Source: Pseudopyrenochaeta lycopersici
Taxonomy: Eukaryota > Ascomycota > Dothideomycetes > Pleosporales > Pseudopyrenochaetaceae
Length of the DNA: 64,000 nt
Direction: 5' to 3'
NCBI GenBank assembly: GCA_003313425.1
Contig: NHZP01000036.1
Location: forward strand, 124,001 to 188,000
The notes below the pieces were generated by a model. The model worked only from the letters and a program-made list of their open reading frames with translations, was not told the DNA's origin and searched no databases. Shown here one piece after another: positions 4,632 through 61,915 of this stretch (positions within the stretch are counted from its first letter, which is position 1; every line of letters starts with the position of its first letter). The position numbers and the translations under genes were made by a program.

Positions 4632-6751
4632 TTATGTAAGCAGCTTCTTAGGCAGCCGTATTGGGCGGCCGCGACGAGACTTGAGATGAACCGGCTCTTC
4701 TCCCTCTGCAGCCATTTCCTCTACAATAGTGACTTGGGTAGCCTTTGTAGCTTTGAGGCTTTGCCTCTTACTCTTTTTAGCATATTGTATATCGTTGTGG
4801 AGTTGTTTTGTAAGCTCTTGCTCTATCTTTTTCTCCTCGCGAAGAGCGACTTTGGCAGCAGCGTCAGCAACCCGCTTCTCCTTCGCCGCAGCTGCCTTGA
4901 GACGACGCTCTTCAGCCAGTAAAGCCTTGCTGACTTTCTTCTGCTCCTTAAGCTTCGCAGCCTCACTTTTTTGGTGTAGCTCCTCCTGTTCTGCAAGGTC
5001 CTTTTGTTCTTGCCGTGCCCGAGCTTCAGCTACCTTTGTAGGCGACCAGAAGACAGCTCCTCCATTGTACTCAGCTGGAGCTTCAAGTAATAGAGCCTTG
5101 CCACACTGCCTACGCTTCTTCTCATTGGCTAGAGCCTCCCTAAGGTGCTCATTCTCATGTTGTAGTACTGCATTTTTCGCAGAGATTGTGTGGATCGTTC
5201 GACTGAGTTTCTTTGCATTTGTATCGTATATATCGTCGACAGCCTGCTTAAGTAAGCGCTCAATCTTTCGCCAGTCGCTTGCGCTTAGTATTGACGTTGA
5301 AGAGCTGCTTGAACTTGGCCTTGAAGTCTCTGGGTTTGGTGTTGAGTATCGCTTGAGGATGACGTTAGCGTTGAGGAGAGCAATGCCTGTTGCTTCGAAG
5401 GCCTTTTGGATGAGCTTATTGTTGAAGCTGGTAGCCCAGGCAAGGTAGAAAAGTCGATAGAAGTCTCTTTTGGTGATGCTCGTAAGCCCTTGCGATCGCT
5501 CAAGGAAGCTGATGAGCTCAGCTTTGTACGCAGCTGCGAGTGGAGCAAACATGACGACGTCGAGCGGCTGTAGCGTGTGAGTACTGTGTGGAGGATACAC
5601 CATTAGAAGGATCTTATTGGCGTCGCAATAACTTATAAAATCCATAGTAACATGAGATCCATGGCCATCGAGGAGTAGTAGGCGGTACGATGAGCGCGCT
5701 TTCGACTTTGTTTCGTGATCAAATACCTGCTTGAGCCACGCAAGTCCTATATCATGGCTAGTCCATCCTGAAGGTGAGCTTGTGAAAAAAGCTTTATGTT
5801 GTACTGGGTCAAAGTCCTGCAACCAGGTATCTTGGATGGCTCCCGATTGAGCCTGGTAGATGAGAGCAGGCGTAAGTACAGTACCATCGGCGCAGATGCA
5901 AGCTATAGTAGTAATCCACTCACGATTACCATCCTGGATGATGTGCTTAAGCTTCCCTTGCTCCCATGTGTTGACAGGTCTAGAAAGTATGGTGATATCT
6001 GATCGGAGAAACCGAAATAATAGACTTTCGGTGAGACCGAGAATATCGGATTGACCGTCGGCCAGTCCGAAGAGCTGAAGTTGAGACCGCAGATATAAAG
6101 ACTAGGTTGTGATCTGTAGAAGAAAAAAAAAAGACAACTCAAAAATAAAGATAGTTTTAAGTCTATTGAGAATTGCATCACATGTGCCACATTATTAGGG
6201 TACTCATACTAATACCATGCCTCCCGGGAGAACACACGCTTCATCTTTGATAGCATACCAACAAGGAAGCCCTTCTCATCCATATCGTATATATCCTGAC
6301 TATCTATGTTGTATTGTTCGATTTTATGCCTTAGGAGCTTGAAGTAGAGGCTATACTTAAAGGCAGAGTCGGCCTTGAAGCGGTTGCGATCGAGGCCGGT
6401 GGCCCAGTGCGAGATGAGCTCGATGTTGTGGCGATGGACGAATCGATCAGCCCAATTTTTGCCTACGTCGTTCTTCGCAATCTGGCTTGCAAAATTACGT
6501 ATCATCGGTCGGGATGGAGGCAGGCCGCGGGCTACAAGCTCGTGTATATATTTGACAAGGTAGGACTCCTGCTCGTTGTTGAGTTTTCGACTGTTAGGTA
6601 GAAGAGCTGCACGAGCTTGTTGCACTCCTCTATGGCGCTTCGACAACGTAGACCGATTGCAGTCAAACTTTTGGGCATACAAAGTATAATTGACTTTTTC
6701 TCCTAGTTCTAGCGATTCCAACGCATCAAGCGCAGCCTCAATACCTGCCAT
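4632..6751 (-). pseudogene. DDE_1 transposase of Pogo-1, split by an insertion
   Basis: The N-terminal part (6751-6209) has a Psq-type helix-turn-helix (TLYAQKFDCNRSTLSKRHRG), a CENP-B/Tc5-type DNA-binding region (LPPSRPMIRNFASQIAKN) and the first catalytic Asp in YDMDEKGF. The C-terminal part (about 5990-4632) continues with GKLKHIIQDGNREWITTIAC, the second Asp in LLLDGHGSH and the third in LQPLDV. It ends in a long Ala/Lys/Glu-rich coiled-coil tail, as usual in fungal Fot/Pogo proteins. The two parts fit together across the inserted repeat, which adds stops. The family catalyses cut-and-paste transposition into TA sites. Confidence 0.88.
5991..6190 (+). repeat. 200-bp dispersed repeat, copy 1 (inside Pogo-1)
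   Basis: Starts GGTGATATCTGATCGGAGAA and ends CATCACATGTGCCAC. It shares most of its length with 32512-32709. It begins near TG and ends near CA, which would suit a solo LTR, but no target duplication is clear. It splits the Pogo-1 transposase frame after FSREAWY. Confidence 0.75.
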
Positions 6752-10086: not shown

Positions 10087-11490
10087 TTAGGCATATGGCG
10101 CAGTTGTAGTGGTCTGTGAGGGTGGTTGAACAAATTGCTGAGTTGAAGGTGGTTGAGGAGCGTACGCCTGCGGGGGAGGATGTCGGGGAGCGCACTGATG
10201 CCCGAGCTGTGTAGCGGAGTATTGAGCAGCAGCCGACCGAGGTGAGATGTAATGCTGCGAACTGTGGTGGCTCAGTATATACTGCGATGCCTGCTGACCA
10301 TGCCAGTATTCTGGTACATGTAAGTGAAGAAGAGCATGGGTTTGGATAATAGCGTGTCCTGCATCTGCTTGTGTAACAGCTCCGATGCCATGATGCTGCA
10401 GGTGGCTCGGCTGGATGTGGTGCGGGTAGCCTGCGACAAGCGGCATATCCTCACTCTCTTCATCCTCAAGACTGACCTTCCAGCCTTTGAGCAGCTCCGG
10501 TCGAGGTTGGATACCAGCCAACTTGGGATCTTGAAACGGCCGCCTTAACTTTCCGCTGACGACATCTTCAAGACTGTAGTAGGAGATGACGTGGTGGTGT
10601 GTCCCTCGATACTTGACAGAAATGGTCTTTTTCATCAAACCTCCTTCCTTAAACGCGTGCCTGTCGAAAAGAGATCCACAGAAACGTCGCTGTTGGTCTG
10701 GGGTGAGGCTCTGCTCGAAGTTGACATACACCTTGTTCATGGAGTCGGCGTCACTAGGTACTGAGCCATCGAAGGAAGGGTTCTCGTATTCATCGTTAGA
10801 GTTATTGAGATTCTCGCCAGTTTTGGTCATGGCATGTCCAGTGCTTTCTTTACGCTTTCGTTTGATTCCGCAGGAAGGATTAAGAGCAGTCTTCTTCTCT
10901 TCAGGTTTAAGTGCCCGTACGAGCTGACGATAGATGAGGCAGTTGTTCATGACTCGGCTAGGCGACCAGTGAACAGCATCAGTCCAGCGCTTGATACCAG
11001 AGGCGTTCTCTTCATAAACCAAAACGGTGCCGGAAGTGAGCATTTCTGTCCTTTCTTTGTCGTGAGGTCGACGGCCAACGTGACTCAAACGACCCTGAAG
11101 CGAGGCTTCCACAATGGTCATGGCATCTCTAGTAGTGTCTAGGAAACCCTTCCAGGTAGGCTTGAAGGCAGGCTGGGCCTTCATTATATTTCCCGCTACT
11201 TGGGGCCTCGCGGGCGGTGGCGTGTTAGTTCCAGTCGCAAGGACATGGGCGGTGGCAATCGAATGTTGGCGTGGAGTTACGCGCGATGGAGGTTGCAATG
11301 AAGGCATGAAACTGGTGTATATGGAGGGGTCGAAGACATTCGAACATGAAGGGTGATGCGAAGCCGAATGTTGCGGCCAATTCCATGAGTCGGCGTCACT
11401 ATAGCCTTCCACCTTCTGCACCCCGCCAAGGGACATATCATGCCCAAACGATGGCATCGTCAACATCAATGCCCTTATACCTTGCAGCAT
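10087..11490 (-). CDS. WOPR-domain (Gti1/Pac2 family) transcription regulator
   Basis: A 467-residue protein. Residues about 112-200 match the first half of the WOPR DNA-binding domain: TWKGFLDTTRDAMTIVEASL, RRPHDKER, SGTVLVYEENASGIKRWTDA and WSPSRV. Residues about 285-325 match the second half: LMKKTISVKYRGTHHHVISY then DVVSGKLRRPFQ. Between them lie a basic KRKRK stretch (possible nuclear signal) and an acidic linker. The tail is rich in His, Gln and Pro. Known relatives (Wor1, Ryp1, Sge1, Mit1) are nuclear master regulators of morphology and of secreted-protein genes. Unusually, about 110 residues precede the domain, whereas in relatives I know it starts near the N-terminus; several usually conserved positions differ. 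This may be a divergent paralogue. A start at Met12 (MPSFGHDMSL) is also possible, and a 5' exon cannot be excluded. No stop or frameshift was seen. Confidence 0.85.
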   Translation of the reverse strand: MLQGIRALMLTMPSFGHDMSLGGVQKVEGYSDADSWNWPQHSASHHPSCSNVFDPSIYTSFMPSLQPPSRVTPRQHSIATAHVLATGTNTPPPARPQVAGNIMKAQPAFKPTWKGFLDTTRDAMTIVEASLQGRLSHVGRRPHDKERTEMLTSGTVLVYEENASGIKRWTDAVHWSPSRVMNNCLIYRQLVRALKPEEKKTALNPSCGIKRKRKESTGHAMTKTGENLNNSNDEYENPSFDGSVPSDADSMNKVYVNFEQSLTPDQQRRFCGSLFDRHAFKEGGLMKKTISVKYRGTHHHVISYYSLEDVVSGKLRRPFQDPKLAGIQPRPELLKGWKVSLEDEESEDMPLVAGYPHHIQPSHLQHHGIGAVTQADAGHAIIQTHALLHLHVPEYWHGQQASQYILSHHSSQHYISPRSAAAQYSATQLGHQCAPRHPPPQAYAPQPPSTQQFVQPPSQTTTTAPYA

Positions 11491-13201: not shown

Positions 13202-14819
13202 CACCAGGTGCCGCAATAATTCGTGAGACGTTTTCTGCTGAGGTAATCAACCCCGCCAAACCTGACCCATCTCATCTCGACAGTGAATGTTCACAAGGCC
13301 ACAACAACATGGAATTGCGCTCAAATAAAGTATATGATGGCTCATTTGAAAGGCCAAAGACTCCTGAACAAAATCCTGTGCTCAAGGTACCTGATACTGA
13401 AGAGCGCGCCCACTTTTTCTGGCATATAGACCATAGACAGCCTGGCGAGAAGATCAAGGATGTATGCGCTCAACATGGGATAAGTAGAGCTACAGGTGAT
13501 AGATGGCGTAAGGAGTATAAGAGATGGGGTAATGCTCACCGTGTGAGAAAGAGGGGGAGCCTAGAAAGGGGTACAAAGCTTGGGAGGCCTTGGCGGGTGA
13601 ATATTCAAAAGTTGGAGCTACTCCTGGATGATTCCACCAACCCTGTGAGGGATAAGCCCTATCAAATTCAAGCTAGAGTGAATGATGTTCCGCTCTGTTC
13701 ACGATCTATGGGGTATAACCTAGTGAATAGAGTAGAATCTCGACTCTATGTAGCCAGCTATTCTAAGGAGATTCGGCATTTCAATAATAAAAAGAGAGTG
13801 AAGTATGGTGAAGATCATAAGAATGAATTACCTCCTGGCCAAGGAGGCTTCTGGGATGGGGTACACTTCACAGATGAGGCTCATCTCAACCCCACAGAAG
13901 ATTTTCAGAAGCCTAGGATCCTCAGGAGAAAGGGGGTTAAGGAGAGACTCAAGCCTGAGAACATCAAACAAAGGAAGCCTATTAAGAAGTCCTCACTCAC
14001 TCTACATATGTTTGCCTCTATCAACTGGTATTTCAAGAGTGAACTGAACTTCTATAATGACGAGAAAGATATGCTAAAGATACCTAAACCACCAAGAAGG
14101 CCAAAGAGATCAAAGTATCACACAGATAAGCGATGGGCTAAAGACCTCAAGGAGTGGGAGGCTCTCTGCCCTCCTCCTATTGAAGGAGACGTCAGTGGCC
14201 ATCACATGAATCAGAAATACTACGCAGAGAATCTCCTGCCCAAGTATATTGAGGCTATTCATCAGGCACGACTTTGGGAGCCACGTGATTGGTATCTTCA
14301 AGAGGACAATGATCCATCTCATGGTACTAAGAGCTCAGACAATGTAGCTATTGAGAAGAAGGAGGCTAATTGGATACCCCTGATCATTCACCCAGCTCAG
14401 AGTCCTGATCTGAACCCAGTAGAAGGTATGTGGCTCATCTTAAAACAGAGAGTTAAGCAAAGATTACATTCACCCCTACCACCCCTAATCCCATGGGATG
14501 GGACTAAGGCCCACCTTCAGGCAATCTGCCGTCAAGAATGGGCATGTATATCAAAGGAGGAAGTCAGGAGTTTAATCTCTGAGATGCCTTGGCGGTGTGA
14601 ACAAGTGGCTTCAAACGGTGGAAGCCTTATTCGCTCAGAAAAATGGTAAAACACCAAGAAAATGATGTATTTACACCTCTATAGCTCTTTGAACAGCCTC
14701 ACGATTATATCTATGCACTCTATTCACTGTTTTGGTGTACAATACTATGGTGGGGTGGAAGCCAAGGCACTGCTTAGCTCAGCAGAAAAACGTCTCACGA
14801 ATTATTGCGGCACCTGGTG
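13202..14819 (+). mobile_element. DDE_3 (Tc1/mariner-like) transposon with 41-bp terminal repeats
   Basis: The left end (13202-13242) starts CACCAGGTGCCGCAATAATT and reads on to CTGCTGAG; the right end (14779-14819) is its complement with one extra T. Bases flanking both ends read ACGC (13198-13201 and 14820-14823), so the apparent target duplication is 4 bp, not TA. It carries one long open frame. Confidence 0.8.
13309..14649 (+). CDS. DDE_3-type transposase, apparently intact
   Basis: 446 residues. The N-terminus carries helix-turn-helix regions (IKDVCAQHGISRATGDRWRK, then GRPWRVNIQKLELLLDD). The catalytic core shows DGVHFTDEAHLNP (first Asp), WYLQEDNDPSHG (second Asp) and SPDLNPVEGMW (third acidic residue). 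By hand count 38 residues lie between the second Asp and the Glu of PVEGMW. An insertion between first and second Asp (IPKPPRRPKRSKYHTDKRWA) is longer than in canonical Tc1. No stops interrupt the frame and both terminal repeats are present, so it may still be mobile. Expected reaction: cut-and-paste transposition. Confidence 0.88.
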   Translation: MELRSNKVYDGSFERPKTPEQNPVLKVPDTEERAHFFWHIDHRQPGEKIKDVCAQHGISRATGDRWRKEYKRWGNAHRVRKRGSLERGTKLGRPWRVNIQKLELLLDDSTNPVRDKPYQIQARVNDVPLCSRSMGYNLVNRVESRLYVASYSKEIRHFNNKKRVKYGEDHKNELPPGQGGFWDGVHFTDEAHLNPTEDFQKPRILRRKGVKERLKPENIKQRKPIKKSSLTLHMFASINWYFKSELNFYNDEKDMLKIPKPPRRPKRSKYHTDKRWAKDLKEWEALCPPPIEGDVSGHHMNQKYYAENLLPKYIEAIHQARLWEPRDWYLQEDNDPSHGTKSSDNVAIEKKEANWIPLIIHPAQSPDLNPVEGMWLILKQRVKQRLHSPLPPLIPWDGTKAHLQAICRQEWACISKEEVRSLISEMPWRCEQVASNGGSLIRSEKW

Positions 14820-15013: not shown

Positions 15014-16687
15014 ATGGCGACGCCGTGGCCCCGAAGGGCGACATGGCCTTCCCCGCTTCGCGAGCATGCTACCGCCCTCAGCGCATTTCTTCACGATGTG
15101 CTGAACACTATCGAGCGCAATGGTAGCCAGACCGTGCCAGCGGACCTTGCTGGAGATGTCATTCGCGGGGCACTGACGTTCGTCTTGAAGACGCAGCACA
15201 CGCCTGACCTTGGCACTATCTGCGACGCCCTCAGGGTCGCACAAACTGAAGCTAAAGCTACTGCGGAACACACCGCACAAGCCCTCGATCAGATCAAGAG
15301 CGAGCTCAAGAACACTACAGAAATCATGCAACAGACAGCTGCAAGTATACAGCAGAATGGTAACACAGCAGAGGAGGCGAGGGCCGCTGCGAAAGAAGCA
15401 ACAGAAGTAGGGAAAGCGACCCTAGAGATGGCGAGAGAGATCAAGAATAAAGCACCACAACAGCAGACGAACGGGCCAGTGTCATACGCTGCAGCGGCAG
15501 CTAGAGGTCCCCCACTAGCAGGTACATATAATACACAGAGTCGCAAAGCACCAATTGTGCAGACGCAACGTGAGGTCATCGTGAACATTAGAGATCCGCT
15601 CACCGTACAGGCCCTTCGGGCGATGAACCCCCGCAACCTTAAAGCCCACGTGGAGCGTGCAATCGAGCAAAGCGGGAACGAGAACATTGCAAGCGTGAAG
15701 ATTGTGTCATCTAACCAGCTTAAGAGCGGAGACCTGAGCGTCAAGGCAGCCACTAGCACTGAAGTCGAAGCACTCCGACAGTTCGCAGACGATTGGGCCA
15801 TGCGCATCGGCAACGGGGCCAGCATACAGATCCCGACGTACGGCGTCCTTGCTCACGGCATCCGCACTAACACGATGGATATGGACAAGTTCGAAGAGAA
15901 CAGGAACCAGATTCTGCAGGACAACAGACCGTTCATTCCCCAGGCTGAGATCCGACACATAGGATGGCTGACCAGAGACGCTGCCGTTAAGATCGCATCA
16001 ACTATCACCATTGAATTCACCAAGCCAGAGGACGCAAACAAGATCATAGACGAGGGCCTAGTCTGGCAGGGCGAGGTCTTCCAGTGCGAGCGATACGAGA
16101 GACAGTGCCGCGTGAAGCAGTGCTTCAAGTGCCAAAAATACGGCCACATAGGAACCCAGTGCAAGGCACCAACAGCATGTGGCTACTGTGCGCAGGAACA
16201 CGACACCCGGGACTGCCCAACCAAGTCGGACCGGAACGCGCCCAGGAAATGTACCCTCTGCCGTGGCGACCACGAAGCTTGGAGCCGCCAGTGCCCAACC
16301 AGGAAAGACGAGATTGCCAAAGCAAAGATGGCATACGAGATGCGGCCTCACTACCACTATGTACCCGAAACCAGAGGAAGGACCGTGCAGCTGGAGATGC
16401 CTGCTACTGTGCGTAGAAGCAGATCCGGCCAGAACGCGGCATCAACACAGGTCGTCCAGCTCACCAGGAACCGATCGCAGCCCGGACGAGGACAGAAGCG
16501 AACCAATACTGGAACAACAATCAACCCAATGGACCAGGAAAACATGCCGCCATCAGGAGCTGGCAGCCAGCGACCACAGAGGACCATCATGCCGAGCCGT
16601 AGAGCGCTTGAGGCAATTGGAGTCAACACACAACTACCACAAAGCAGCACTCAGCATATGGAAATCGATTCTACGACCGAAGCATGA
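15014..16687 (+). CDS. LINE ORF1: gag-like nucleic-acid-binding protein
   Basis: 557 residues. The N-terminal half is Ala-rich and predicted helical/coiled. From about residue 370 there are three Cys/His knuckles: CFKCQKYGHIGTQC, CGYCAQEHDTRDC and CTLCRGDHEAWSRQC. This is the layout of ORF1 proteins of fungal Tad-type elements, which bind element RNA into a ribonucleoprotein particle. The tail is rich in Arg, Gln and Pro. The stop TGA (16685-16687) overlaps the ATG of ORF2 (16684-16686) as ATGA, suggesting coupled reinitiation. Confidence 0.9.
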   Translation: MATPWPRRATWPSPLREHATALSAFLHDVLNTIERNGSQTVPADLAGDVIRGALTFVLKTQHTPDLGTICDALRVAQTEAKATAEHTAQALDQIKSELKNTTEIMQQTAASIQQNGNTAEEARAAAKEATEVGKATLEMAREIKNKAPQQQTNGPVSYAAAAARGPPLAGTYNTQSRKAPIVQTQREVIVNIRDPLTVQALRAMNPRNLKAHVERAIEQSGNENIASVKIVSSNQLKSGDLSVKAATSTEVEALRQFADDWAMRIGNGASIQIPTYGVLAHGIRTNTMDMDKFEENRNQILQDNRPFIPQAEIRHIGWLTRDAAVKIASTITIEFTKPEDANKIIDEGLVWQGEVFQCERYERQCRVKQCFKCQKYGHIGTQCKAPTACGYCAQEHDTRDCPTKSDRNAPRKCTLCRGDHEAWSRQCPTRKDEIAKAKMAYEMRPHYHYVPETRGRTVQLEMPATVRRSRSGQNAASTQVVQLTRNRSQPGRGQKRTNTGTTINPMDQENMPPSGAGSQRPQRTIMPSRRALEAIGVNTQLPQSSTQHMEIDSTTEA

Positions 16688-19600
16688 ATCAGCACACCAC
16701 ATTAAGCATACTACAGTACAACGTGCGCAAATCGAGGGATACAGTGATGGCAACTCTGCTTCGAGATTCTAAAGTTCACGAGTACGACATTCTAGCCATC
16801 CAGGAGCCGTGGAGGAACCCGTTCATGGCGACAACTCACCATCCAGCGAAGGACGTTTTCCATCTCTGCTACCCAGCAGCAGCCGAAGAAGGCCCAGCCA
16901 GAGTCTGCTTCTTCATAAACAAGAGAATAGACCATAAGCAGTGGCGATTCAAGGAGCACACGAAAGACATCTGTTCTCTTATTATTGAGCCTAGCGAAGC
17001 ACGACAGGAGCAGCAACGACTGACTATACACAATATATACAACCCTACAAGGAACAGTACTAACACCGGATCTACGCTGACGGATATTCGTACAGTCCTT
17101 AACGAGCACAGGGACAACGAGCAGATACTTCTTGGCGACTTTAACCTGCATCATCCCCTGTGGGGAGGGTTGAACGTCAGACGCATAGATCTAGAGGCGG
17201 AAGAGTTAATAGCGATCATAGAAGACTTTGACCTTAGCAATACACTGTCTCCGGGAACTATCACATACGAAGAAGCGGCTTGGCAATCTACCATCGACCT
17301 GTGCCTGGTCACCGTGGGCCTCAACGACAGGGTGATCAGAAGCCAGGTCGATCGCGATCTCGACCACAACTCAGACCATCTACCGATATGCACCGTGTTG
17401 GATACGACTGTGCAGTACCTAGACAAGGCATCTCAGAGGAACTGGAGGCGCATGGACGAGAAAGCATACACAAAAGCCCTGCAGCAAGCCCTGCCACCGA
17501 CACGCAGACCCGCGACAAAGATGGCACTTGATAGCTACGTCCATGAAGTGATTACGGCGATCAGAAGCGCAATCGACAAAGCAGTTCCGCAAACATGCTT
17601 CTCACCCCGAGCAAGGGAGGGATGGACTGCGGAGTGCAAGGCGGTACTCGCAGAAGCGAAAAGACTAAAGAGACTACACAGCCAGTACAACACAGAGCAA
17701 TCGTGGGAAGAGTACCGCGAAGCTAGAAACCGCAAAGCAAGAACGATCCGCAAAGCGATGACAAAGATGCATAGAGAACGGGTAGAAGACGCGGCACAGT
17801 CGCCAGACAAGCTCTGGAAGCTTGCTAGCTGGGCGAAGACCCGGGGCAACGTGGCGCCTCGGGTTACGCCTAGCATACGAAACCCGACAACACAGCGCGA
17901 GGTTACAGAGCCAGCGGACAAGGCAGACTTGTTCCGCGATGTCTTCTTTCCTCCACCACCAGAAGCAGACCTTGAAGACATCCGAGACGCTGAGTACAAC
18001 GGCCAGATCGAGCTGCCACCCATCACAGAGAAGGAAGTGAGGGACGCCATCTGTGCAGCGTCACCGCGCAAAGCTCCCGGCCCAGATGGTATCATCAATC
18101 GAGCCTTACAGGCAGGATCGAAACTACTTACATCCCACCTGACGACCATCTTCAACCGCAGCCTACGTCTGGGTTACTGCCCATCACATTTCCGCGGATC
18201 GACTACGGTCGTTCTGCGAAAGCCCGGCAAAGACAACTACACCGTGCCAAAAGCATACCGACCAATCGCGCTACTCAACACAGTTGGCAAAACGATGGAT
18301 GCAGTGATCGCCCGGCGGCTCAGTCATCTAGTGGAAACACATTGTGTGCTCCCAGCGACACACATAGGCGGCAGGAAGATGCGCTCCACTGAGCACGCGC
18401 TCCATGCAGTCACGAGCAAGATATACAGTGCATGGAACAGAGGAGCTGGTCAAGTGGCCAGTCTCCTGCTGCTTGACGTCTCTGGAGCCTTCGACAACGT
18501 CTCACACACGCGGCTGCTGCACAACCTGCGGAAGCGAAGAGTAGACGAGAAGACGGCCAGGTGGATTGCAAGCTTTCTCAGTAACAGACATACCCGTATA
18601 GCTATCGATGGCTTCAAGTCACAAGAGTATAGCATAAATACAGGCATACCACAGGGAGTTGAAAATGTGATTCTTCAAGTGTATAGATTGACCTATGGGC
18701 TTGTGTGTACTTATATACATGTAGACTGTCCCCGTCTACATAGGCAGACAAGCCACAGACTCCATCGTGGCGTATTTGCCTATAGGCATATACGCCACCT
18801 CGTCATGTGCTGTTCAGAAACAACTCTCCCACTAACTGCAGGTGGCGAGTCCAATACAGGAGCTCTTGTCCATCCCAAGTCCATTCACCAGATTCTCATG
18901 AGCATCCCTGGGGAGCGGCTTCGTGAGGAGATCAGCCAGATTTTCCTTGGTGCTGACCCTTTGAGTATTGATTCTCCCACTGAGCGTCATTTCTCGCAGA
19001 AAATGATATTTCAGTTCAATGTGCTTTGTGCGGTCATGTAACTCAGGATTACGAGTCAGCTTAAGTGCAGCATTGTTGTCAATCAGAAGCGGAGTTGATG
19101 TGGCTTCCAGGGCTTTGATGCGAAGGTCGTTGATCATATTTTGGATCCAGATGATCTCTTGAGTGGCCTTATATCCAGCCACGTATTCAGCTTCGCAGGT
19201 TGACATTGCTACAGTCCTTTGTCTTCTGGACGACCATGATACAGGGCTCCCTGCAAGTTTGACAACGTAGCCGGTAGTAGAACGTCGAGTGTCTGGACAT
19301 CCGGCCCAGTCGGCATCAACATATGCATGCAGTTCTCGATCTGCACAGTTCCTTTTGAAATGAAGTCCGAGGTTGGGTGTATATTTGAGATACGCATAGA
19401 TATCATCGACGGCTTTCATATGCTCTTCAGTTGGGTTTGCACAGAATCTGGAGACAACTCCCACTGCTTCTGCAATGTCCGGCCGCGTGACCACCATTGC
19501 GTAGTTGAGTGCTCCAACTTTTGATTGGTATCGCCTTTGGAAGTCAAGAGCTCTTGGTGGACCATCATATTTGGTTAGTTTCGGGCTTGTTCGCATGGGC

Positions 19601-22600
19601 GTCTTTCGTGGGTGAATGTCCTGCAATCCATAGCGATTGAGGATCTGCTGGATGTATGATTCCTGATGCAGGTGAACATCGCCATTGGCCTCTTGATGTA
19701 CGTGCATCCCCAGGTAGTAAGCACAGAGGCCAAGGTCTGTCATGTTAAAGCGTGAAGCCAATTGACGTTTCATGGCTATGATACGATCTTCATTTTGGCC
19801 GAAGATGTTAATGTCGTCGACATAAACTTCCATGATCAGGTTCTCGTCGTCTTTGATGAAGACTGAAGGATCAAAGTTTGAGACTCTCCACCCATTTTCT
19901 TCGAGGAAAGCCCTGAGTTTGAAGTACCACTGTCTCGGTGCCTGCTTTAGTCCGTACAAGGACTTGCACAATTTAAGAACATGATTGCTTGCTTCAGGAT
20001 AGCCTTCCGGTGGTTCGACGAAGATTTCGTGTTCAAGGTCGCCATTGAGAAATGCTGTCTTGATATCCATTTGGTGGCACTTCCAGCCATATCGAGCTTG
20101 AAGTGCAAAGAGTATTCGGTAAGATGCTGACTTAACGACAGAGGCGTATGTTTCATCGAAATCAAGGCCATATATCTGTGAGAAGCCTCGCACGACAAAT
20201 CTTGCCTTGTGTCGAGCAACTTCTCCATCTGAGCCAAGTTTCCGCTTGAAGACCCACCGACCGGTGAGTACTTTGCGGTTTGTCGGTCGATCCACCACTT
20301 CCCATGTCTTGTTTTCCAGCAAGCTGTTGTACTCTTCTTGCATGGCTTGCTCCCACTGATTCCATTCAGTGGAGGCCAAGGCAGTCTTCCTGTTGTGTGG
20401 TTCAGGACCAAGTGAGTTGGCTGAGACCGACATCATACAGATGGTTGGCCTACTGGCTTCCTCCATGGTAATCTTCCCCTTGTCGGCCGTTTCCCGAAGG
20501 GAGACGGGCGACGAAAACGTGGAGGTTGTTGAGCTACTGTGGAGACGCAAAGGCGACAGAGAATGATTTCCTTTCTTGAGGCAGGATGCAATGACGAGAT
20601 TGGCTTGTGGCTCCAACAGCGCAGGGTCGATGAGCACTTCGCTATCCTGGATTTCGAGATCTTCGTCAAGGGAGTCATCCAGCGTTTGCCAATCTTCTTC
20701 GTCTTCCCCCATCGTCGTGCCTGCCTCTGTCATTGGTGGCGGTGATCTCAGACGTTGCGGTGGAGGGCCCCGCAGAATGCCACGAAAGAAATAACGTTTA
20801 TATCCTCCATCATCATTAGACTGGAGACACGTCGCGCCTTCCTTCGTTCCAAGGAGCTCCTGCCTTGCGATACATATGTTGCATGGGAACTCGTAGTCCG
20901 GATGAAAGATGGCGTCAATGTCTTGGCCAAGTTCGGCGCAGCGGGCACAGCACTCATGCTGAATACCAAGATCATGAATTCTGTGCCACATTGATTTGGG
21001 GTGAAGGTTCTGCAGTATTGGGTGATACACCGCAGTATTCGGATTGACACGGAAACTGCAGGATGTCCTTCCGGACGTTCGACAGTGTAGGCATGGTATT
21101 GCCTGACATCTTCTGGCATTTCCCCATCTTCGGCTCCCCTGACAGGCAACACATTCCGGATCGTTTAGAGGAGCCAGCATGGAGCACCTGAATCTGCCCT
21201 TTTGGCAGGGAATGCATCTTGTCTCTGCTGAGCCCCCCTCACACCATCTCTTCGTCTTCCTGCACTGCTTGCATTTGTCCTTTGGGTCCTGTGTACCCCG
21301 TGGGACATTTCCACTGAAGGAGCATTTGTACCCTCTCATCGGGCAGTTCCTGCAAGTCTTGGGGTCCTCTGTAAGGTAGCACCGGCGGCGTTCTTTGGTA
21401 CATGCGTAGCATTTCTTCTCCGGTGGAAGATATGTGTCTGACCATCTTGGTACCTTGTTGTCCTCGGGCACGAAAGAGCAAACTCGGCTCACCGACTGGC
21501 ACTTATCGCATCTGGAGTGGGGATTGGATCGTCTACAGACGGCTCTTACTTGTCGACATTGGTCACATTTGTCTTGTGGTGGTTGTCCCTTTCGCCTGTC
21601 GTCATCCGGCGCAAAAGAGCAGATGAGGCCGCATGTGTTGCAGTGATCGCATCTCGAGGTAGGATCGGATCGTTTACAAACATGACCGTTCTTACGACAG
21701 CGTTCGCACTTGTCTTGTGACGGTTGACCTCGGGGGCATCTTTTCCTTTTCTTCAGTGATGCGCTTGGTTTTACATGTCGCACATGAGTGCTACCATTAG
21801 AGAAGTATGTGCCTTGCCTGGTGAGTATGTTCACTTGCGGCATAATTCTATTTCGGGAGTCGTAAACGGCGTAAGCATCGTCCCATGTATCATAGTCAAT
21901 GCCAGCTTCTGAAAACGCTTTATGTATGGGGCCCATTTCGCGTGCTTCTTCTTGGTTATTGTCTGGTTCGATGTCTGAAAAAGTACTTGAAGACTGGCTT
22001 TGGGTCTCAGATAGACTGTCTGAATATGGATGTACCTGGTCGTTACTGTCTTCCTCAGGGTGGCGCACAGTATTGTGACCAATCTGTGCGAAGTAGGGAG
22101 AGGTTTTGGAAACACTTCGGGTTGAGTAGCGAGGGACTTCTGGACCGGTTTGTGTAGAATTAGGAAAACTCCCTGGGCTACTTGCGTGGGGTTGGGAGGT
22201 TGTTTCCAGGATCGACTCGTTGTCTGAAGCATCGTCATCCAAAGTTATGTCACCGATTGGAATTCGATTGGAGAGGGTTTCGCCGTCATGGTCGTCGGTC
22301 TGGCCTTGGCCATCGTCGACACGTGGTGCAGTAATGCGTACGACGCGTTTCTTATCTGGGTGCCAAACTCTCAGTACGGCTTCAGTTTCGAAACCAACGA
22401 AGTACCCAATCCATCCTCGTGGTTGGAGAAGGGTTTTCTGTCTATGCTCTGGTGGATAGGTGACATAGACCCGACTGCCGAAGATCCGTTCGATGTCGAG
22501 GTTTGGTTTGAGTTTGTAGAATGCCTCCCACGGCGTTATTTTCCCCTCGAGGGCCCGTGATGGTGATCTATTTTTGATCCAGATTGCATGTGAGAAAGCT

Positions 22601-25600
22601 TCAACCCACAGTGTTTCTGATAGGGAAACGTTCCTCATTGCTTCTTCTGTGCGTGTACCAAGTATCTTGGAAATTGTTGATGAGACGCTGTTTGTTGCTT
22701 CTTGCAGCATTGCTGAAGCTCGTTCTCTGTCTGTACGGAAACCTCTTTCCGCAACACCGTTCATATGGTGCGTGTAGGGTACTGAGTTTTCCAGAGAGAT
22801 TGCATGTCGCTGGAACCAGTCTCGAAGTTCTCCATATAGTGGAAATTCGTTGTCGAGCCGGTATGCGCGAATTGTCATGTTGTTCCGTTTTTCAATAGTC
22901 CGATGAAGATGTCGGAAAACTTCCGGAATCTTGTCCTTGGTTGCATATCTTGCTGACCAGGTGAAACGAGTTGTATCATCGGTTATGGCCAAAATATATA
23001 TGGTGCCATCCCACGCGCCAATGGGATATGGTCCCCAGGCATCTGCGTGCATTATTTCTCCTGGATTCGTGGCTCGTCGAGTTGCCGGATCTCTAGGGAT
23101 TCTGTTTACTGCTCTGGTGGTAGCGCAGACAGGACAGATGGTACCCAATTTTGCCCGTAATTGTTTGTCAGTCAGATCAATGCCATTGCTTACTTTGAGG
23201 AGAGCCCTCAAGCTCTGAACGCTGAGGTGTCCCATTCTTCTGTGCCATTTCCAGACTGGGTCGTCGTAATCAAGTAGAGACACAACGAAAGGTGGCTGAA
23301 CTCCTGGTGGGAGTTGTTGGTCCGGAGTTCGCGTAGAGTCTTCTCCCACTGCTTCAGCATCTCTTGTGCTGTTCGCTTGTAGTAAGATTGGTTCCCCTTG
23401 ACTCGGTTGGAGGTCATTTGGGTGTTCCGGTGGGTCGATTTGTAGGTGAAAGAGTCCATCAATCAGGCTGGCGTGGCCAATTTCAAAACCTTCAGCAGTT
23501 CTGATGGATATTCCTTTGATTCCCCAGACTCCTGTGAGTTTTGCCCTTTCAGCGATCCAAGAGAGTGACAGAATGTTGCATCTGGCGTCCTGAGCATAGG
23601 CCACATTGTGCAGCTCTAGTTCGACTGGTTCATTTCCATCGGTAGTTAGCTGGAGAAGTACAGTTCCAGCTCCTTCGATATGCAGGCCACCGTTATTTGC
23701 AGTTCCAACGGTGTATGTGATTTTCTGGAATTCAGAAAACCATGCTTTGTCATTTGCAATGCAGACATTTGCACCTGAGTCAACAATCCATTTGGAGCTT
23801 CGTTCCACTGCGTCATCCTTGAGCAGCATCATCGTTTGTGGATTGAGACCATCCATGAGTCGTGGCCTTCCTGGATACAGAGAGTCACCTGGATTGTTGT
23901 ATTCCGGGACTTTGGCTTCGTCCTTCATGGAAGTATGTTTGTCCAGGTTCGTTATCTTGTCGCTTGATCCGGCATTTGCACATGTTGCCTCCCATTTGCT
24001 GCGGTGGAGCATGGCAGTGGCCACAATTCTGCCTGGGTGCTTGGGATCATGTCGCGACTGAGGTTTGTGGTGATCCTTGGATCCCGTATTTTTGACGGTA
24101 TTAACCTGTCCTTTGAACTGTTTCGAGGTTTCCTCGTGTTTGTTGAATTTGTTCTCCCTGAATTCGGGGTGCGCGATCCAGCATTCTGATTCGTTGTGGG
24201 TGCCCCACTTGTTGCATCCTTCACAGAGTTGCCGGTCTTTTCTCTCTCTTCCCTTGTTCTTTGCATCACTCTCTTTGTTATCCTTTTCTGATGCCAGCTG
24301 TGCCTCCACTCCTAGAAGATGTCCGTGAAGAGTTACCAGGTCGCGTGGAAGAGCAGCTGTTCCAGCCAAGAGGTTCCAGGTATCTAGGAATCTGTTGAAA
24401 CGGTTCGGCAGGGAGCGTACGACCTTTGACATGAGTTGTTCGTCACTGAAAGTGCCCTCGAGGTCGATGATGTCTTGTTGCAGGGTTTTGAGAGTGTTGA
24501 TAAGATCAGATACTGATCCCTTGAACTTGAGTTGTTCGATTTTTCCTAGAGTCATGTCCAGGGCGCGAGCGTCATTCATCTTGCAGAGTCCCTTGAGCTT
24601 CTCCATTGCCAGCTGTGGATTCTCTTCATCCTTGATGCATCCTCGAAGGGCTGTGTTGATGGTGGTGGAGAGGAGGCCTCGTGCATATCGAAGACGTTTC
24701 TGCTGTTTTTCGTATTCGTCAAGATCGAGCTTGTAGAACTGGATGATCAGACTCAGCTGATCGCTTGTCTGAGCATCCACACTGCTGCCGATTGGGTCAG
24801 CGTCTTTGGCGTTCGACTTCTTGCCTGGTTTGGCTTGAGTCGAAACCCCAGAGAGGGTTGGTCGCGTTGGCTTGTCTTGGATAGTCTCTTCTCCGGTAAG
24901 GATATTCCAGACATTATTTGCCTCGGCGATGAACTTCAGGTCGCGCTTCCATGCAAGGTAATTTTCCTGGCCTTGAAGTACTTCGACCCGTGCTTCAACG
25001 GATTCGTTGGTGAGTTTGATGCTAGCCATGGCTGCAAACGTTTGACTTCTTGAAGACCGGATTCGGACTATCACTGAAAGGGTGCAGTATGCACAACCGG
25101 GCTCATAACCAGTTGAAAATGTGATTCTTCAAGTGTATAGATTGACCTATGGGCTTGTGTGTACTTATATACATGTAGACTGTCCCCGTCTACATAGGCA
25201 GACAAGCCACAGACTCCATCGTGGCGTATTTGCCTATAGGCATATACGCCACCTCGTCATGTGCTGTTCAGAAACAACTCAGGGCTCGCCGCTATCGCCT
25301 ATCCTTTACCTCTTCTACAATGCTGACCTGATAGAGGAGTGCAACCAAGAGACGAACGCGATGTCGACAGGATACATAGACGACGTGGGCATCCTCGCAT
25401 GGGGCAACACAACAGAAGAGACATGTAACACATTGAACCGCATTCTTAATAAAGCACAGCGTTGGGCTAGCACCCACGCTTCCATCTTCGCCCCAGACAA
25501 GTTCCAGCTGACTCACTTTACGAGATCGCGCACGCGCATCGATACAGGCAGACTAATCCAAACCGACTGGGGTGAAGTGAAACCCAAGACAACGTGCAAA

Positions 25601-38403: not shown

Positions 38404-41249
38404 CAGTGTGAGGAATGGATGGATTTGGCGGCGCATCCATTTGCCAACTGGTAGTTGGATGGATGATGGAAAAATTTCCGGAAAAATCCGAGTTCACTTA
38501 TGCGAGACGAGGTTACAGGGTTTTTTTTTACCGCTATATAGGTGCTATCTCCGTTTCTTTGATTATAATAATATTTGCCTTGTCCCAAGAATGCAAACAC
38601 TGAGCTGCTTGTATCGTAGGCTGCTCAAGATGTTGCGACGGGTCGTGATCATGAGCCCCATTCGGCTGAATACACGCTCAGGCTCATCGCTCATTGCTGG
38701 AATCGAGAGAATATCGAATGCCATTTGAGCCAGATGCGGGTACTCCTTAATACCAATAGTCCGCCACCATTCAAGTGGAAACTCAAGCTCGATTGGCTCT
38801 TGGTTGCTATATCGCTCAAACTCATCTGGGACAGCTGCTTTTTGGTTGTTACTTCGTGCCTTGGCCAAACCTTTTGCGCGGTTATGAAACGTCTCCAGCG
38901 TATCAGGTTCATGTATCGTAGTCTTCTTTGCTGGTGACATGGCATCTAAGACGGGTAGTTGCTTATAGGTCGAACTCCATAGCGACTTGACTGCTTTTCG
39001 GCCGGCCGTAATCCACAACTTGTTGTTTGCCCATTGAGACTCGATGACCTTCCAGGTGTAGGCAGGATGTAGCACGGCAGCCGCAAGATATGCCGGTGAG
39101 TCGTCGAGTTTTGCGTAGTACTCTTCAGCTTTATCAAGTGCAAGTTTAATCTGCGTAACGAAGTGCCATTGGCCTTCAGTCGTAGCTAGTGATGCATGTT
39201 TGTAACGTTCGTAAGCGGCCGTAAGTTCCTCAATAATAAATTCAAGGTCAAATTGAACTTTGCTGATCCCACAGGACTTGCCATCACCTGGCCGACCTTC
39301 AAGGTCTATTGTTGCAAGCCAGCAAGGCTCTAGCAGTTTTTGATACTGGGTCAAGATCTCCCAGTCTTCTGAATCAAGCGTATCTTTTAGGATGGCATTC
39401 CGAGAATGATCCTCGTCTTGAATCCAGCGTCCTTTAGACTTCTTTCGTACGACACGTTGGCGCTCAGATAATAAGAAGCCTTCGAAAGGGGCTCGGAGTT
39501 TGAGGAGTATCTTGATCTCGTCGTAGACGCTGTTCCAGCGTGTGTCGTTGCTTCTGTGGAGCTCACGCGTTTTGATCGTATTCCATTCGGTTGGGTCGAT
39601 AATGGACTTGAAGTATTTGAGTTGGGCCTGGTGCCACCGTTTTCGTCTTTGTGGACTTGCGTATATCCAAACGACTAGATTATGAGCCTTGCCAACTGGT
39701 CCTATTCGCCTCCATCGATTTAACTCTTCCTTCAAATTCGCCGGCACCGACCCTTCGAATTCGAAGAGGTTCTTATCGAAGCCGAATAAGAGATGGCGGG
39801 CAATAAGGTTAATAATATGGCCTGCACAGCGCAGGCGGCGCTCGTCAGGATCGAAGCCAAATTCTTCTCCAATTACTTTCATTGCCGAATCGTTGCTCGA
39901 AGCATTATCCAGTACAAAAAAGCCGAGTCTGTCTTGAATACCAAAGTCCTTGATCACGGAAATAACCTGCTCCGCAATATATATACCCGCATGCGAGTCG
40001 GTTTGCTCGGGTGTTGCTAGCAGTATCGTTTGGTTCTTGAATTCCGCATTGATAAAGTGAGCAACAATGCCGTTGAGCGAGAGGCAATTTCCAGAGGTCC
40101 AGAGGTCGAAGGAGATGTGGATCTTGCTGACGGAATCCTGCAACTCCTGTTTGACTTTGGCCTTGTGAATCCTATCGCCTTTCATGATCCAGTCTTTGAC
40201 AGTCTTTGCGGTAGGTATTGCATCTTTTGCGCGGGGCGAGAGATAGGCAAGAAGGTCGCGAAACGGCTCACTATCAACCTGCCTAATTGACACATTGTCA
40301 TAGACAATCTAGCGAATAAGAAGCTTTGGAAGGTGGCTTCATCGAAGGCCAATGCCAGCGCATTTAATATCTCTTGCTCTCGAGACTCATTTGTATCTAA
40401 GGCTGCTGGCACCGATATACCCCTTCTTTTGAAAGGGATAATTTCTCTCTCCTTGTTCCAAGTTTTGCCGTGAACTTGGCGGATGTGTTCAACTACATTC
40501 GTGCTTCCGCCGTCGACCTTGTAATAATGAGCGTGACATGTCCGTGAAATCGGGTCGGAAGTATGGCAGCGGACACATAGCCACCAGCGGGCGCCAGTCT
40601 CAGTATGTTCAATTGGTACGCCAAACTTCCAGATAGGTGAGTTTAGCCTAGCCGTACGCCTCGAGATCGGAATACTGAAGCCAGGAAGTCGAGACCAAAC
40701 AACACTATCGTATTTGAATTTTAATCCCTCAATTAGTGAGGCGTCGGCCGTACGCGCTTTTGTGCTCCACTCCGACTCGAAAGTAGGCTCTGTTGAGATG
40801 TCTGAAGCAATATCAGAAACACTATCTAGTGATGACTTTACCGACGACGTTGGCGAAGACGGTAACGAAGGTTGCTCAGAATGAGCTTGCTGAGCCTTCT
40901 TCATAATATAGAAACCTTTTTGATATAGAAGTTTAGAGAGTTTGTACGTATAGTACGGAAAGTTATATAGAAAAAGGTTAATAGTATAAGATATGATGGG
41001 TCCGCGGTGGTGTCTATAGATATAGTGATAGTATTATTAAATGTGATAGCCCCTAAGCCCCTGCATATAATATTAAATATAATATTAGATGTGATATTGA
41101 ATGTGATAGTGGATGTGATAGTGGAGGCAACGTACTATACCGATGCCTTGAAATGGATGGATTTGGATATCCATTCTGCATCTGGATAACCGAGATTTGG
41201 ATGGCTTTTCCAAACACATCCAATTCAGATCCATCCATTCCTCACACTG
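38404..41249 (-). mobile_element. hAT element with CAGTGTGAGG ends
   Basis: Terminal repeats CAGTGTGAGGAATGGATGGA at left and the complement (TCCATCCATTCCTCACACTG) at right. Several ATCCA-type motifs lie just inside, as is common for hAT. Flanking 8-mers differ, so the target duplication is lost. It holds one transposase with a frameshift. Confidence 0.85.
38563..40904 (-). pseudogene. hAT transposase with one frameshift
   Basis: The N-terminal part (40904-about 40310) has a BED-like finger (WWLCVRCH, STNVVEHIRQVHGK). The frame breaks near 40308 (FQSFLFAR) and resumes as IVYDNVSIRQVDSEPFRDLL. The catalytic region shows ISFDLWTS, GFFVLDNASSNDSAMK, RRLRCAGHIINLIARHLL and SNDTRWNSVYDE. The hATC dimerisation region near the end reads YPHLAQMAFDILSIPAMSDE then ERVFSRMG. 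hAT enzymes cut and paste DNA with 8-bp target duplications. Apart from the shift the protein looks complete. Confidence 0.88.
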
Positions 41250-61912: not shown

Positions 61913-61915
61913 CTA
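61910..61915 (+). promoter_or_regulatory. putative stop-readthrough site UGA-CUA
   Basis: The gag stop TGA is followed by CTA with pol in the same frame. UGA followed by CUA is among the best-known leaky stop contexts (established knowledge). Whether it acts here is inference. Confidence 0.55.

What the first reader, a model, noticed from the sequence alone, without database searches (positions are those of the whole stretch)
20872..21708. Copia polyprotein carrying a tandem array of fungal Zn2Cys6-type clusters
Between integrase and reverse transcriptase, Copia-1 encodes four motifs with exactly the spacing C-X2-C-X6-C-X8-C-X2-C-X6-C and two degenerate ones. This fits the binuclear zinc cluster of fungal transcription factors. 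I know of no Copia element with such an array. It could direct integration to chosen DNA or chromatin, much as chromodomains do in some Gypsy elements, or bind nucleic acid in the particle. Repeats 1 and 2 look like recent duplicates, so the array may still be changing.
Basis: partly seen in the sequence, partly recalled or inferred. Interest (0 to 1): 0.88.

Follow-up and report, generated by a model that had tools for sequence, protein, structure and literature searches.

The report
Homing Copia retrotransposons with zinc-cluster arrays
A fungal jumping gene carries a row of zinc-cluster modules like those of fungal gene regulators, and it and its nearest relative land again and again at exact DNA sites inside other jumping genes, which suggests that the row reads DNA and aims the insertion.

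Summary
In detail: a 2080-aa Copia polyprotein (window 25074-18832, minus) has four exact C-X2-C-X6-C-X8-C-X2-C-X6-C units plus two degenerate ones between integrase and reverse transcriptase. The array marks one lineage: 11 of 11 full-length integrases at least 50% identical to family C's lie beside it (families A, B, C); 33 of 42 Copia spans examined, none from A-C, lack it. A and B keep 30 of 30 aligned array cysteines but 80 of 236 other residues. A family-C unit passes the Pfam Zn_clus cut-off; the window's units do not.

The larger result is target choice. In 34 of 34 readable outer LTR ends, family A lies at one position in LINE reverse transcriptase genes, the PQ|G codons, in at least eight LINE flank types and both orientations. 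All five family-B locations lie at one position inside an A LTR. Three C-type LTRs lie in pogo-type transposase genes, one by coordinates only. Three array-less families show no shared target.

I infer that the array reads DNA and aims integrase; that step is not shown. Structure models failed; literature tools were down.

The parts
18832..25074 (-). Family-A Copia gag-pol ORF, 2080 aa from GTG; first in-frame ATG at 25029
   Evidence: Retrotran_gag_2 (below cut-off), Pol_BBD, gag_pre-integrs (below cut-off), rve, SH3_retrovirus, RVT_2 in Copia order
20872..21708 (-). Array of six-cysteine units between integrase and RT
21619..21708 (-). Zn2Cys6-type unit 1 (aa 1123-1152), exact spacing
   Evidence: Pfam Zn_clus 13.0 bits, below cut-off 21
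21478..21567 (-). Zn2Cys6-type unit 2 (aa 1170-1199), exact spacing
   Evidence: Zn_clus 17.0 bits, below cut-off
21322..21411 (-). Zn2Cys6-type unit 3 (aa 1222-1251), exact spacing
   Evidence: Zn_clus 17.8 bits, below cut-off
21184..21273 (-). Zn2Cys6-type unit 4 (aa 1268-1297), exact spacing
   Evidence: Zn_clus 18.9 bits, below cut-off
21052..21153 (-). Unit 5, variant six-Cys unit C-X2-C-X11-C-X4-C-X2-C-X7-C (within aa 1308-1341), spacing kept in family B
   Evidence: no Zn_clus match
20812..20949 (-). Unit 6, degenerate Cys pairs (within aa 1376-1421), cysteines kept in family B
22336..23271 (-). Integrase region (gag_pre-integrs, rve, SH3-like); D-X34-E pair in the alignment
   Evidence: 80-81% identical to B, 52-53% to C, 21-29% to other Copia spans
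19591..20313 (-). Reverse transcriptase RVT_2 (aa 1588-1828)
   Evidence: E 4.1e-69
18657..18825 (-). 3' LTR (coding sense), 169 nt, termini AGTTG...CAACT
   Evidence: identical to the other LTR
25111..25279 (-). 5' LTR (coding sense), 169 nt, identical
18652..18656 (.). Target-site duplication CAGGG (left copy)
25280..25284 (.). Target-site duplication CAGGG (right copy)
16684..18656 (+). Target: first part of LINE ORF2 (endonuclease, RVT_1 profile positions 3-107) up to the PQ|G codons
25285..27172 (+). Target: rest of LINE ORF2 (RVT_1 profile positions 123-204, RNase H), in frame when the flanks are joined at the TSD (1286 aa)
15014..16687 (+). LINE ORF1 of the target element; weak zinc-knuckle match below cut-off
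18767..18798 (.). 32-nt palindrome in family A's LTR; it contains the single site (LTR nt 116-120) used by family B

Best explanation
The window holds a member of a Copia lineage (families A, B, C and relics) with a tandem array of Zn2Cys6-type units between integrase and RT. Families A and B are site-specific: each inserts at fixed nucleotides inside other mobile elements, and C-type elements probably are too. Most likely mechanism: each zinc cluster contacts a short stretch of DNA, several together recognise the target, and the adjoining integrase joins the cDNA there with a 5-bp duplication. Families would change target as the array diverges in loop residues and unit number while its cysteines stay fixed. 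Shown: the array, its cysteine conservation, its confinement to this lineage among the spans examined, and site-specific insertion by A and B. Inferred: zinc binding, DNA binding, and that the array rather than another part of the protein sets the target. A likely benefit, also inferred, is that targets are codons other elements cannot easily lose and sites where insertion is harmless to the host.
For: Array. Same lineage: 11 of 11 full-length integrases at least 50% identical to C's lie beside an array; 33 of 42 spans examined have no array and none of them is from A, B or C. Constraint: 30/30 Cys against 80/236 other residues kept, Fisher p 2e-13. Zn2Cys6 identity: family C 30.3 bits (unit) and 31.1 (array) against cut-off 21; PDB profile hits LEU3 2.3e-5 and PUT3 4.5e-4 with family C included; LAC9 0.0049 from A and B units alone. 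Site specificity: A, 34 of 34 readable outer LTR ends at LINE PQ|G, TSD CAGGG/CAAGG, at least 8 LINE flank types, both orientations; B, 5 of 5 locations at A-LTR nt 116-120, duplication GTATT read on both sides at four and on one side at the fifth; C-type, three LTRs in DDE_1 genes, two of them at one nucleotide, one of these by coordinates only. Controls: of 26 flank pairs from three array-less families 0 are similar as DNA and 1 weakly as protein; the same tests on 19 A flanks find 48 and 105 of 171 pairs. A and B differ in target and differ most in aa 921-1430 (35-45% identity against 81-93% in integrase and RT).
Against: No DNA- or zinc-binding evidence. The AF2 models are poor: one unit, pLDDT 69, matched nothing in the PDB at E<=0.001 and weakly resembled defensins; the whole array, pLDDT 39. 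The window's own units score below the Pfam cut-off. A and B also differ in the linkers around the array (40% and 61%) and in part of gag (61%), so the target-setting part is not isolated. The control has limited power at small numbers: on four full A copies the same DNA test finds only 1 of 6 pairs and the protein test 2 of 6, because copies in opposite orientation expose opposite sides of the target. Three of six C-type locations are unread, and the C34 copy of C does not share the exact CTGTT junction of the C5 copy. Seven of nine full-length E LTRs are unread. A short integrase piece 71% identical to C (C11) has no array found beside it. All data come from one genome.
Confidence: 0.66

Rival explanations
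1. Site specificity is real, but the integrase or its C-terminal linker reads the target; the array serves another role, such as nucleic-acid packaging or contact with a host factor.
For: Integrase and array are inherited together, so lineage data cannot separate them. The array is basic (57 K+R, 30 D+E in 294 aa), as expected of any nucleic-acid binder.
Against: A and B integrases are 80-81% identical and RT 93%, yet their targets are unrelated; the divergence is concentrated in the array and its linkers. Gag has its own knuckle-like CX2CX5HX4C.
Confidence: 0.2
2. The shared target arises from cDNA recombination into existing copies, or from amplification and segmental duplication of already interrupted LINEs, not from targeted integration.
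For: Some copies are recombinants (C5:1807783 and the C85 copy have outer flanks from different LINE types), and several locations share one near-identical LINE flank.
Against: Eight upstream LINE flank types (clusters at 80% ungapped identity over 90 nt), two TSD spellings, both orientations in the same LINE type, and family-B insertions in separate A LTRs with matching TSDs. LTR ends and TSDs are those of integration.
Confidence: 0.06
3. The array is a Cys-rich nucleocapsid or RNA-binding module unrelated to targeting, and specificity comes from tethering to a host protein, as recalled for Ty1, Ty3, Ty5 and Tf1.
For: Tethering is the usual mode in LTR elements (recalled, not looked up).
Against: Targets are exact to the nucleotide and lie in coding sequence of different LINE types, in a transposase gene and in an LTR, with no obvious shared bound host factor.
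Confidence: 0.08

Closest known systems
Ty1/copia LTR retrotransposons (Pseudoviridae)
   Same: gag-protease-integrase-RT order, Pfam RVT_2, rve and Pol_BBD, short LTRs, 5-bp TSD; primer site matching the initiator-tRNA anticodon arm, as recalled for Drosophila copia
   Different: A linker of about 675 aa between the SH3-like domain and RT holding the array; nucleotide-exact targets
Fungal Zn2Cys6 (Gal4-type, PF00172) transcription factors
   Same: Six-cysteine spacing, basic residues in the first loop, profile matches to LEU3, PUT3 and LAC9
   Different: Several units in tandem inside a retroelement polyprotein, where transcription factors usually have one (recalled); window units below the Pfam cut-off
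Chromodomain Gypsy elements (chromoviruses; recalled)
   Same: Extra domain placed C-terminal to integrase that may steer integration
   Different: No chromodomain match at E<=0.1; target is DNA sequence, and the domain is a zinc-cluster array
Ty5, Ty3, Ty1 and Tf1 targeting (recalled)
   Same: LTR retroelements with non-random targets in safe places
   Different: Those use protein tethers (recalled); here the same nucleotide is used at every readable A and B site
Homing endonuclease elements and site-specific LINEs such as R1/R2 (recalled)
   Same: Fixed targets in conserved codons of a repeated gene, insensitive to wobble positions at the PQGS codons (CCNCARGGNTC)
   Different: LTR retrotransposon with integrase; targets are genes or LTRs of other transposons

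Membership tests
Ty1/copia LTR retrotransposon | Integrase precedes RT; RVT_2, rve and Pol_BBD above cut-off | tested here: met
   RVT_2 233.3 bits, Pol_BBD 54.2, rve 33.8 against 32.6
Ty1/copia LTR retrotransposon | Identical LTRs and 5-bp target duplication | tested here: met
   169-nt identical LTRs, CAGGG on both sides
Ty1/copia LTR retrotransposon | LTR termini TG...CA | tested here: not met
   AGTTG...CAACT. Non-canonical ends; a usual rather than defining feature (recalled)
Zn2Cys6 binuclear cluster (PF00172) | CX2CX6CX5-12CX2CX6-8C | tested here: met
   four units in the window; family B has two exact and one CX9 variant; family C has further units, some with altered spacing
Zn2Cys6 binuclear cluster (PF00172) | Pfam gathering score (21 bits) | tested here: inconclusive
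   window units 1-4 13.0-18.9 and family-B array 15.7, not met; family-C unit 30.3 and array 31.1, met
Zn2Cys6 binuclear cluster (PF00172) | Binuclear-cluster fold | tested here: inconclusive
   low-confidence models, no Zn2Cys6 match
Zn2Cys6 binuclear cluster (PF00172) | Two zinc ions bound; DNA binding | not testable with these tools
   needs protein
Site-specific retroelement | Independent insertions at one nucleotide position with TSD | tested here: met
   A: 34 of 34 readable ends, 8 LINE flank clusters; B: 5 of 5 locations
Site-specific retroelement | Targeting domain identified | not testable with these tools
   correlation only
Chromodomain Gypsy (considered) | Chromodomain after integrase; RT before integrase | tested here: not met
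   no chromodomain match at E<=0.1, Copia order

The most novel reading that the evidence does not exclude
A clade of LTR retrotransposons carries a modular DNA-reading array of Zn2Cys6 units whose loop residues and unit number diversify while the cysteines stay fixed. Each array gives its family a nucleotide-exact homing site in an essential codon motif of another transposon or in a sister family's LTR, so that elements stack: LINE, then family A in the LINE, then family B in family A's LTR. It would be a natural zinc-cluster code for DNA, and the first LTR retrotransposons known to me (from recall, not from a search) that home like endonuclease genes.
Probability: 0.5. Interest if true: 0.95.

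Novelty: new variant of a known kind. Interest (0 to 1): 0.9.

Why it matters
How LTR retrotransposons choose targets is known mainly from protein tethers (recalled). A lineage with nucleotide-exact targets, and sister families that differ in both array and target, makes it directly testable whether tandem zinc clusters read DNA and steer an integrase. It would also extend Zn2Cys6 domains, known as regulators, to a selfish-element role, and would describe hyperparasitism in which transposons use conserved catalytic codons of other transposons as homing sites.

Tried and rejected
Structure prediction: one unit aligned with three other window units and the whole array alone; both too weak to use. 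Foldseek on the first gave weak defensin-like hits, probably a disulphide artefact.

Cross-species search: the protein database was switched off. Three IMG/VR scans, with the A+B array alignment, the A RT and the A+B+C integrase alignment, confirmed no relative. Whether the lineage occurs in other fungi is therefore open.

Literature: nine searches of the paper library timed out, one was rejected for a term, and three tries to open one paper on fungal LTR retrotransposons failed (71 by an argument error). No paper or listing was seen; all comparisons with the literature are recalled and novelty is unverified.

Rejected: 'units 1 and 2 are recent duplicates'. A dN/dS test of the array was not usable because synonymous sites are saturated there. 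I first misread a 76% LTR match beside a 100% half match as an LTR mosaic in family B; it is a family-B insertion inside an A LTR. One search used an LTR end one base short; one search corrects it. The E LTR looked like a second family specific for the A LTR: one copy (C62) is read there and one more (C3) lies between A-LTR halves by coordinates. The TSD pattern was meant to cover both orientations but, by my error, could match only GTATT and not AATAC (checked); its single match (C62) therefore tests one orientation only, and no search was left to repeat it.

Full report
THE OBJECT. The window is G000:C36:124001-188000 of an unnamed 62.7-Mb assembly in 188 contigs, fungal by its gene content (my judgement). 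A Copia polyprotein ORF of 2080 aa runs on the minus strand from 25074 to 18832. It has Pfam Pol_BBD, rve, SH3_retrovirus and RVT_2 above their cut-offs, and Retrotran_gag_2 and gag_pre-integrs below theirs. The LTRs are 169 nt, identical, with ends AGTTG...CAACT; the 5-bp duplication CAGGG flanks the element on both sides. The sequence after the 5' LTR (coding strand GGTTATGAGCCCGG) fits priming from the anticodon arm of initiator tRNA, as I recall for Drosophila copia.

THE ARRAY. Four exact CX2CX6CX8CX2CX6C units lie at aa 1123-1297. They are the only matches to the general Zn2Cys6 spacing in all six frames of the window. Shuffling the 294-aa array 20,000 times gave the strict motif once in 11 cases and twice or more in none. 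Unit 5 has six cysteines with other spacing and unit 6 is degenerate; the cysteines of both are kept in family B. Window units 1-4 score 13.0-18.9 bits against Pfam Zn_clus (cut-off 21), unit 5 has no match, and family B's array scores 15.7. In family C one unit scores 30.3 and the array 31.1, above the cut-off; of the two other C units scanned alone, one scored 16.1 and one gave nothing. A profile of 14 units from A, B and C finds LEU3 (2.3e-5) and PUT3 (4.5e-4) first among solved structures; 15 of its 19 hits at E<=1 are, by the recalled family of the named proteins, Zn2Cys6 proteins, the other four being two Endonuclease 8-like 3 and two ginkbilobin-2 chains. A profile of seven A and B units alone finds LAC9 first (0.0049), and 4 of its 8 hits at E<=1 are Zn2Cys6 proteins. 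AF2 was not informative: one unit aligned with three others reached pLDDT 69 and resembled no zinc cluster, and the whole array alone reached 39.

THE LINEAGE. Own-genome search with the array found seven A copies (four with no stop in the array region, including the window; one with one stop; two decayed) and two B copies; the call lists 10 pieces, two of which belong to one decayed copy. A third, diverged array was found at C5:1931944; searching with it gave a second copy at C34, relics at C46 (two) and a short match at C59. With C's integrase as query, 11 full-length matches have at least 50% identity, and all 11 lie beside an array found. One short 71% piece and one decayed 30% copy lie on C11, with no array found there; the remaining seven matches have 23-33%. 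In a direct comparison A's integrase is 80% identical to B, 52% to C, and 21-29% to the 16 of 17 other Copia spans that gave a hit; one further span, L084, was left out. I examined the stretch upstream of RT in 42 of the 152 RVT_2 matches (30; 12 more, picked to cover different families): nine carry an array, all A, B or C; 33 do not. Several of the 33 (L011, L029, L032, L033, L036, L039, L040) are rearranged or out of frame upstream and count weakly. An RT tree of 13 of the 30 RT loci puts A, B and C together (support 100/99), with a long-branch warning for C.

CONSTRAINT WITH DIVERGENCE. Between A and B, integrase and RT are 81-93% identical, aa 921-1430 only 35-45%. In aa 1150-1430 all 30 aligned cysteines are kept against 80 of 236 other residues. 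A has one unit more than B at the front. Units A1 and A2 share 18 of 34 aa and B1 shares 17 of 34 with each, so the duplication is about as old as the A-B split, not recent. Synonymous sites are saturated in the array, so dN/dS was not interpretable there.

TARGETS OF FAMILY A. A DNA search with the LTR gave 59 pieces, of which the first 26 (L041-L066) are A-type LTRs (86-100% identical) or 119-120-nt parts; the others are B-type LTRs, remaining halves and self-matches of the palindrome. Of the 52 ends of these 26, 13 face the element's interior (12 scored by script; L063 left by eye as a variant), 5 are cut by a nested insertion at LTR nt 119/120, and the remaining 34 all lie at the junction between the PQ and GS codons of a LINE reverse transcriptase. 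The TSD is CAGGG or CAAGG (TAGGG in mutated copies). The 18 upstream flanks fall into 8 clusters at 80% ungapped identity over 90 nt; 19 hits have one orientation relative to the LINE and 6 the other, with both in the same LINE type. Rebuilt sites agree at first and second positions of the PQGS codons and vary at the wobble positions, CCNCARGGNTC. In the window, joining the LINE flanks at the TSD gives one open 1286-aa ORF2 ending at 27172; RVT_1 is split between profile positions 107 and 123. Two A copies are recombinants whose outer flanks come from different LINE types (C5:1807783 and the C85 copy).

TARGETS OF FAMILY B. Seven full-length B LTRs mark five locations. All five lie at nt 116-120 of an A LTR, in both orientations; the duplication GTATT is read on both sides at four and on one side at C5:1959887. 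Two shorter B pieces (C76, C27:14306) were not read. The site lies in a 32-nt palindrome of the A LTR (window 18767-18798). A 123-nt LTR of another family (E) sits at the same nucleotide in C62 with GTATT on both sides and, by coordinates, between A-LTR halves in C3. The other seven of nine full-length E LTRs are unread. The pattern test matched only C62, but through my error it covered one orientation only, so E is neither shown nor excluded as specific.

TARGETS OF FAMILY C. The C5 copy is flanked 3' by a DDE_1 (pogo-type, recalled) transposase starting at the codons VECISADG (PF03184, E 4.9e-29), with CTGTT at both ends. A relic at C46 (LTR 77% like C) has as 3' flank the same gene reversed (75% identity over 231 nt), starting at the codons of DGF, which I take for the catalytic DG-F/H-GSH motif (recalled). 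A third LTR at C45 (87% like C) meets a DDE_1 match at the same codon by coordinate arithmetic; that match runs 25 nt into the LTR, so the junction is less certain. Three more C-type locations (C34, C43, C28) are unread; C34 does not share the exact CTGTT junction.

CONTROLS. Three array-less families were read at the 3' end: F28 (5 of 7 loci; two dropped because homology ended early), F16 (4 of 4) and F35 (5 of 5). None of 26 within-family pairs of 300-nt flanks is similar as DNA at E<=1e-3 on the same strand or on either strand; as six-frame protein one pair is (F16 L016-L026, 22 residues, E 7.5e-4). A fourth family, F12 (5 loci), was not used because its ends were unclear. How strong is this control? 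On four full A copies the same DNA test finds 1 of 6 pairs and the protein test 2 of 6, since opposite orientations expose opposite sides of the target; on 19 A flanks it finds 48 and 105 of 171 pairs. At A's rates about 7 DNA and 16 protein pairs of 26 would be expected; 0 and 1 were seen.

INTERPRETATION. Site-specific insertion by A and B is shown by sequence. That the array selects the site is inferred from its position next to integrase, its Zn2Cys6 features, its co-inheritance with a site-specific integrase clade, its absence from the three families without a shared target, and the concentration of A-B divergence in it while their targets differ. The main gap is that integrase and array are never separated in these data. 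The paper library did not answer and no other fungal genome could be searched, so novelty and spread are unverified. I file it as a Copia element (membership met except for TG...CA ends) that works like a homing element, with a probable Zn2Cys6 array.

Noticed in passing
L006, L007 (G000:C5): Two decayed A copies differ from the window copy almost only by C>T and G>A (166 of 169 and 115 of 118 substitutions), mostly in CpA/TpG context: a repeat-induced point mutation signature.
   Followed up: partly
C5:1807783; C85:25732-38818; C3:2287234-2287466: A copies whose two outer flanks come from different LINE types or whose LTR halves point the wrong way: probable recombination between insertions.
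   Followed up: no
window 60701-64000: An array-less Copia element (its RT is the L028 match) runs off the window end.
   Followed up: partly
window 4635-5822, 13309-14646, 38566-40293, 54638-57193: DDE_1, DDE_3 and two hAT transposase matches; the region is dense in mobile elements.
   Followed up: no
window 10090-11490, minus: A Gti1/Pac2-family gene (E 2.9e-53) lies among the transposons.
   Followed up: no
G000:C73, C78, C185: Zn_clus matches in long frames (522-857 aa) about 1.3 kb from, and opposite in strand to, Copia RT fragments; relation unknown.
   Followed up: no
G000:C6:666022-666352: An E LTR split by 203 bp with a 5-bp overlap of the halves: probably another nested insertion.
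   Followed up: no
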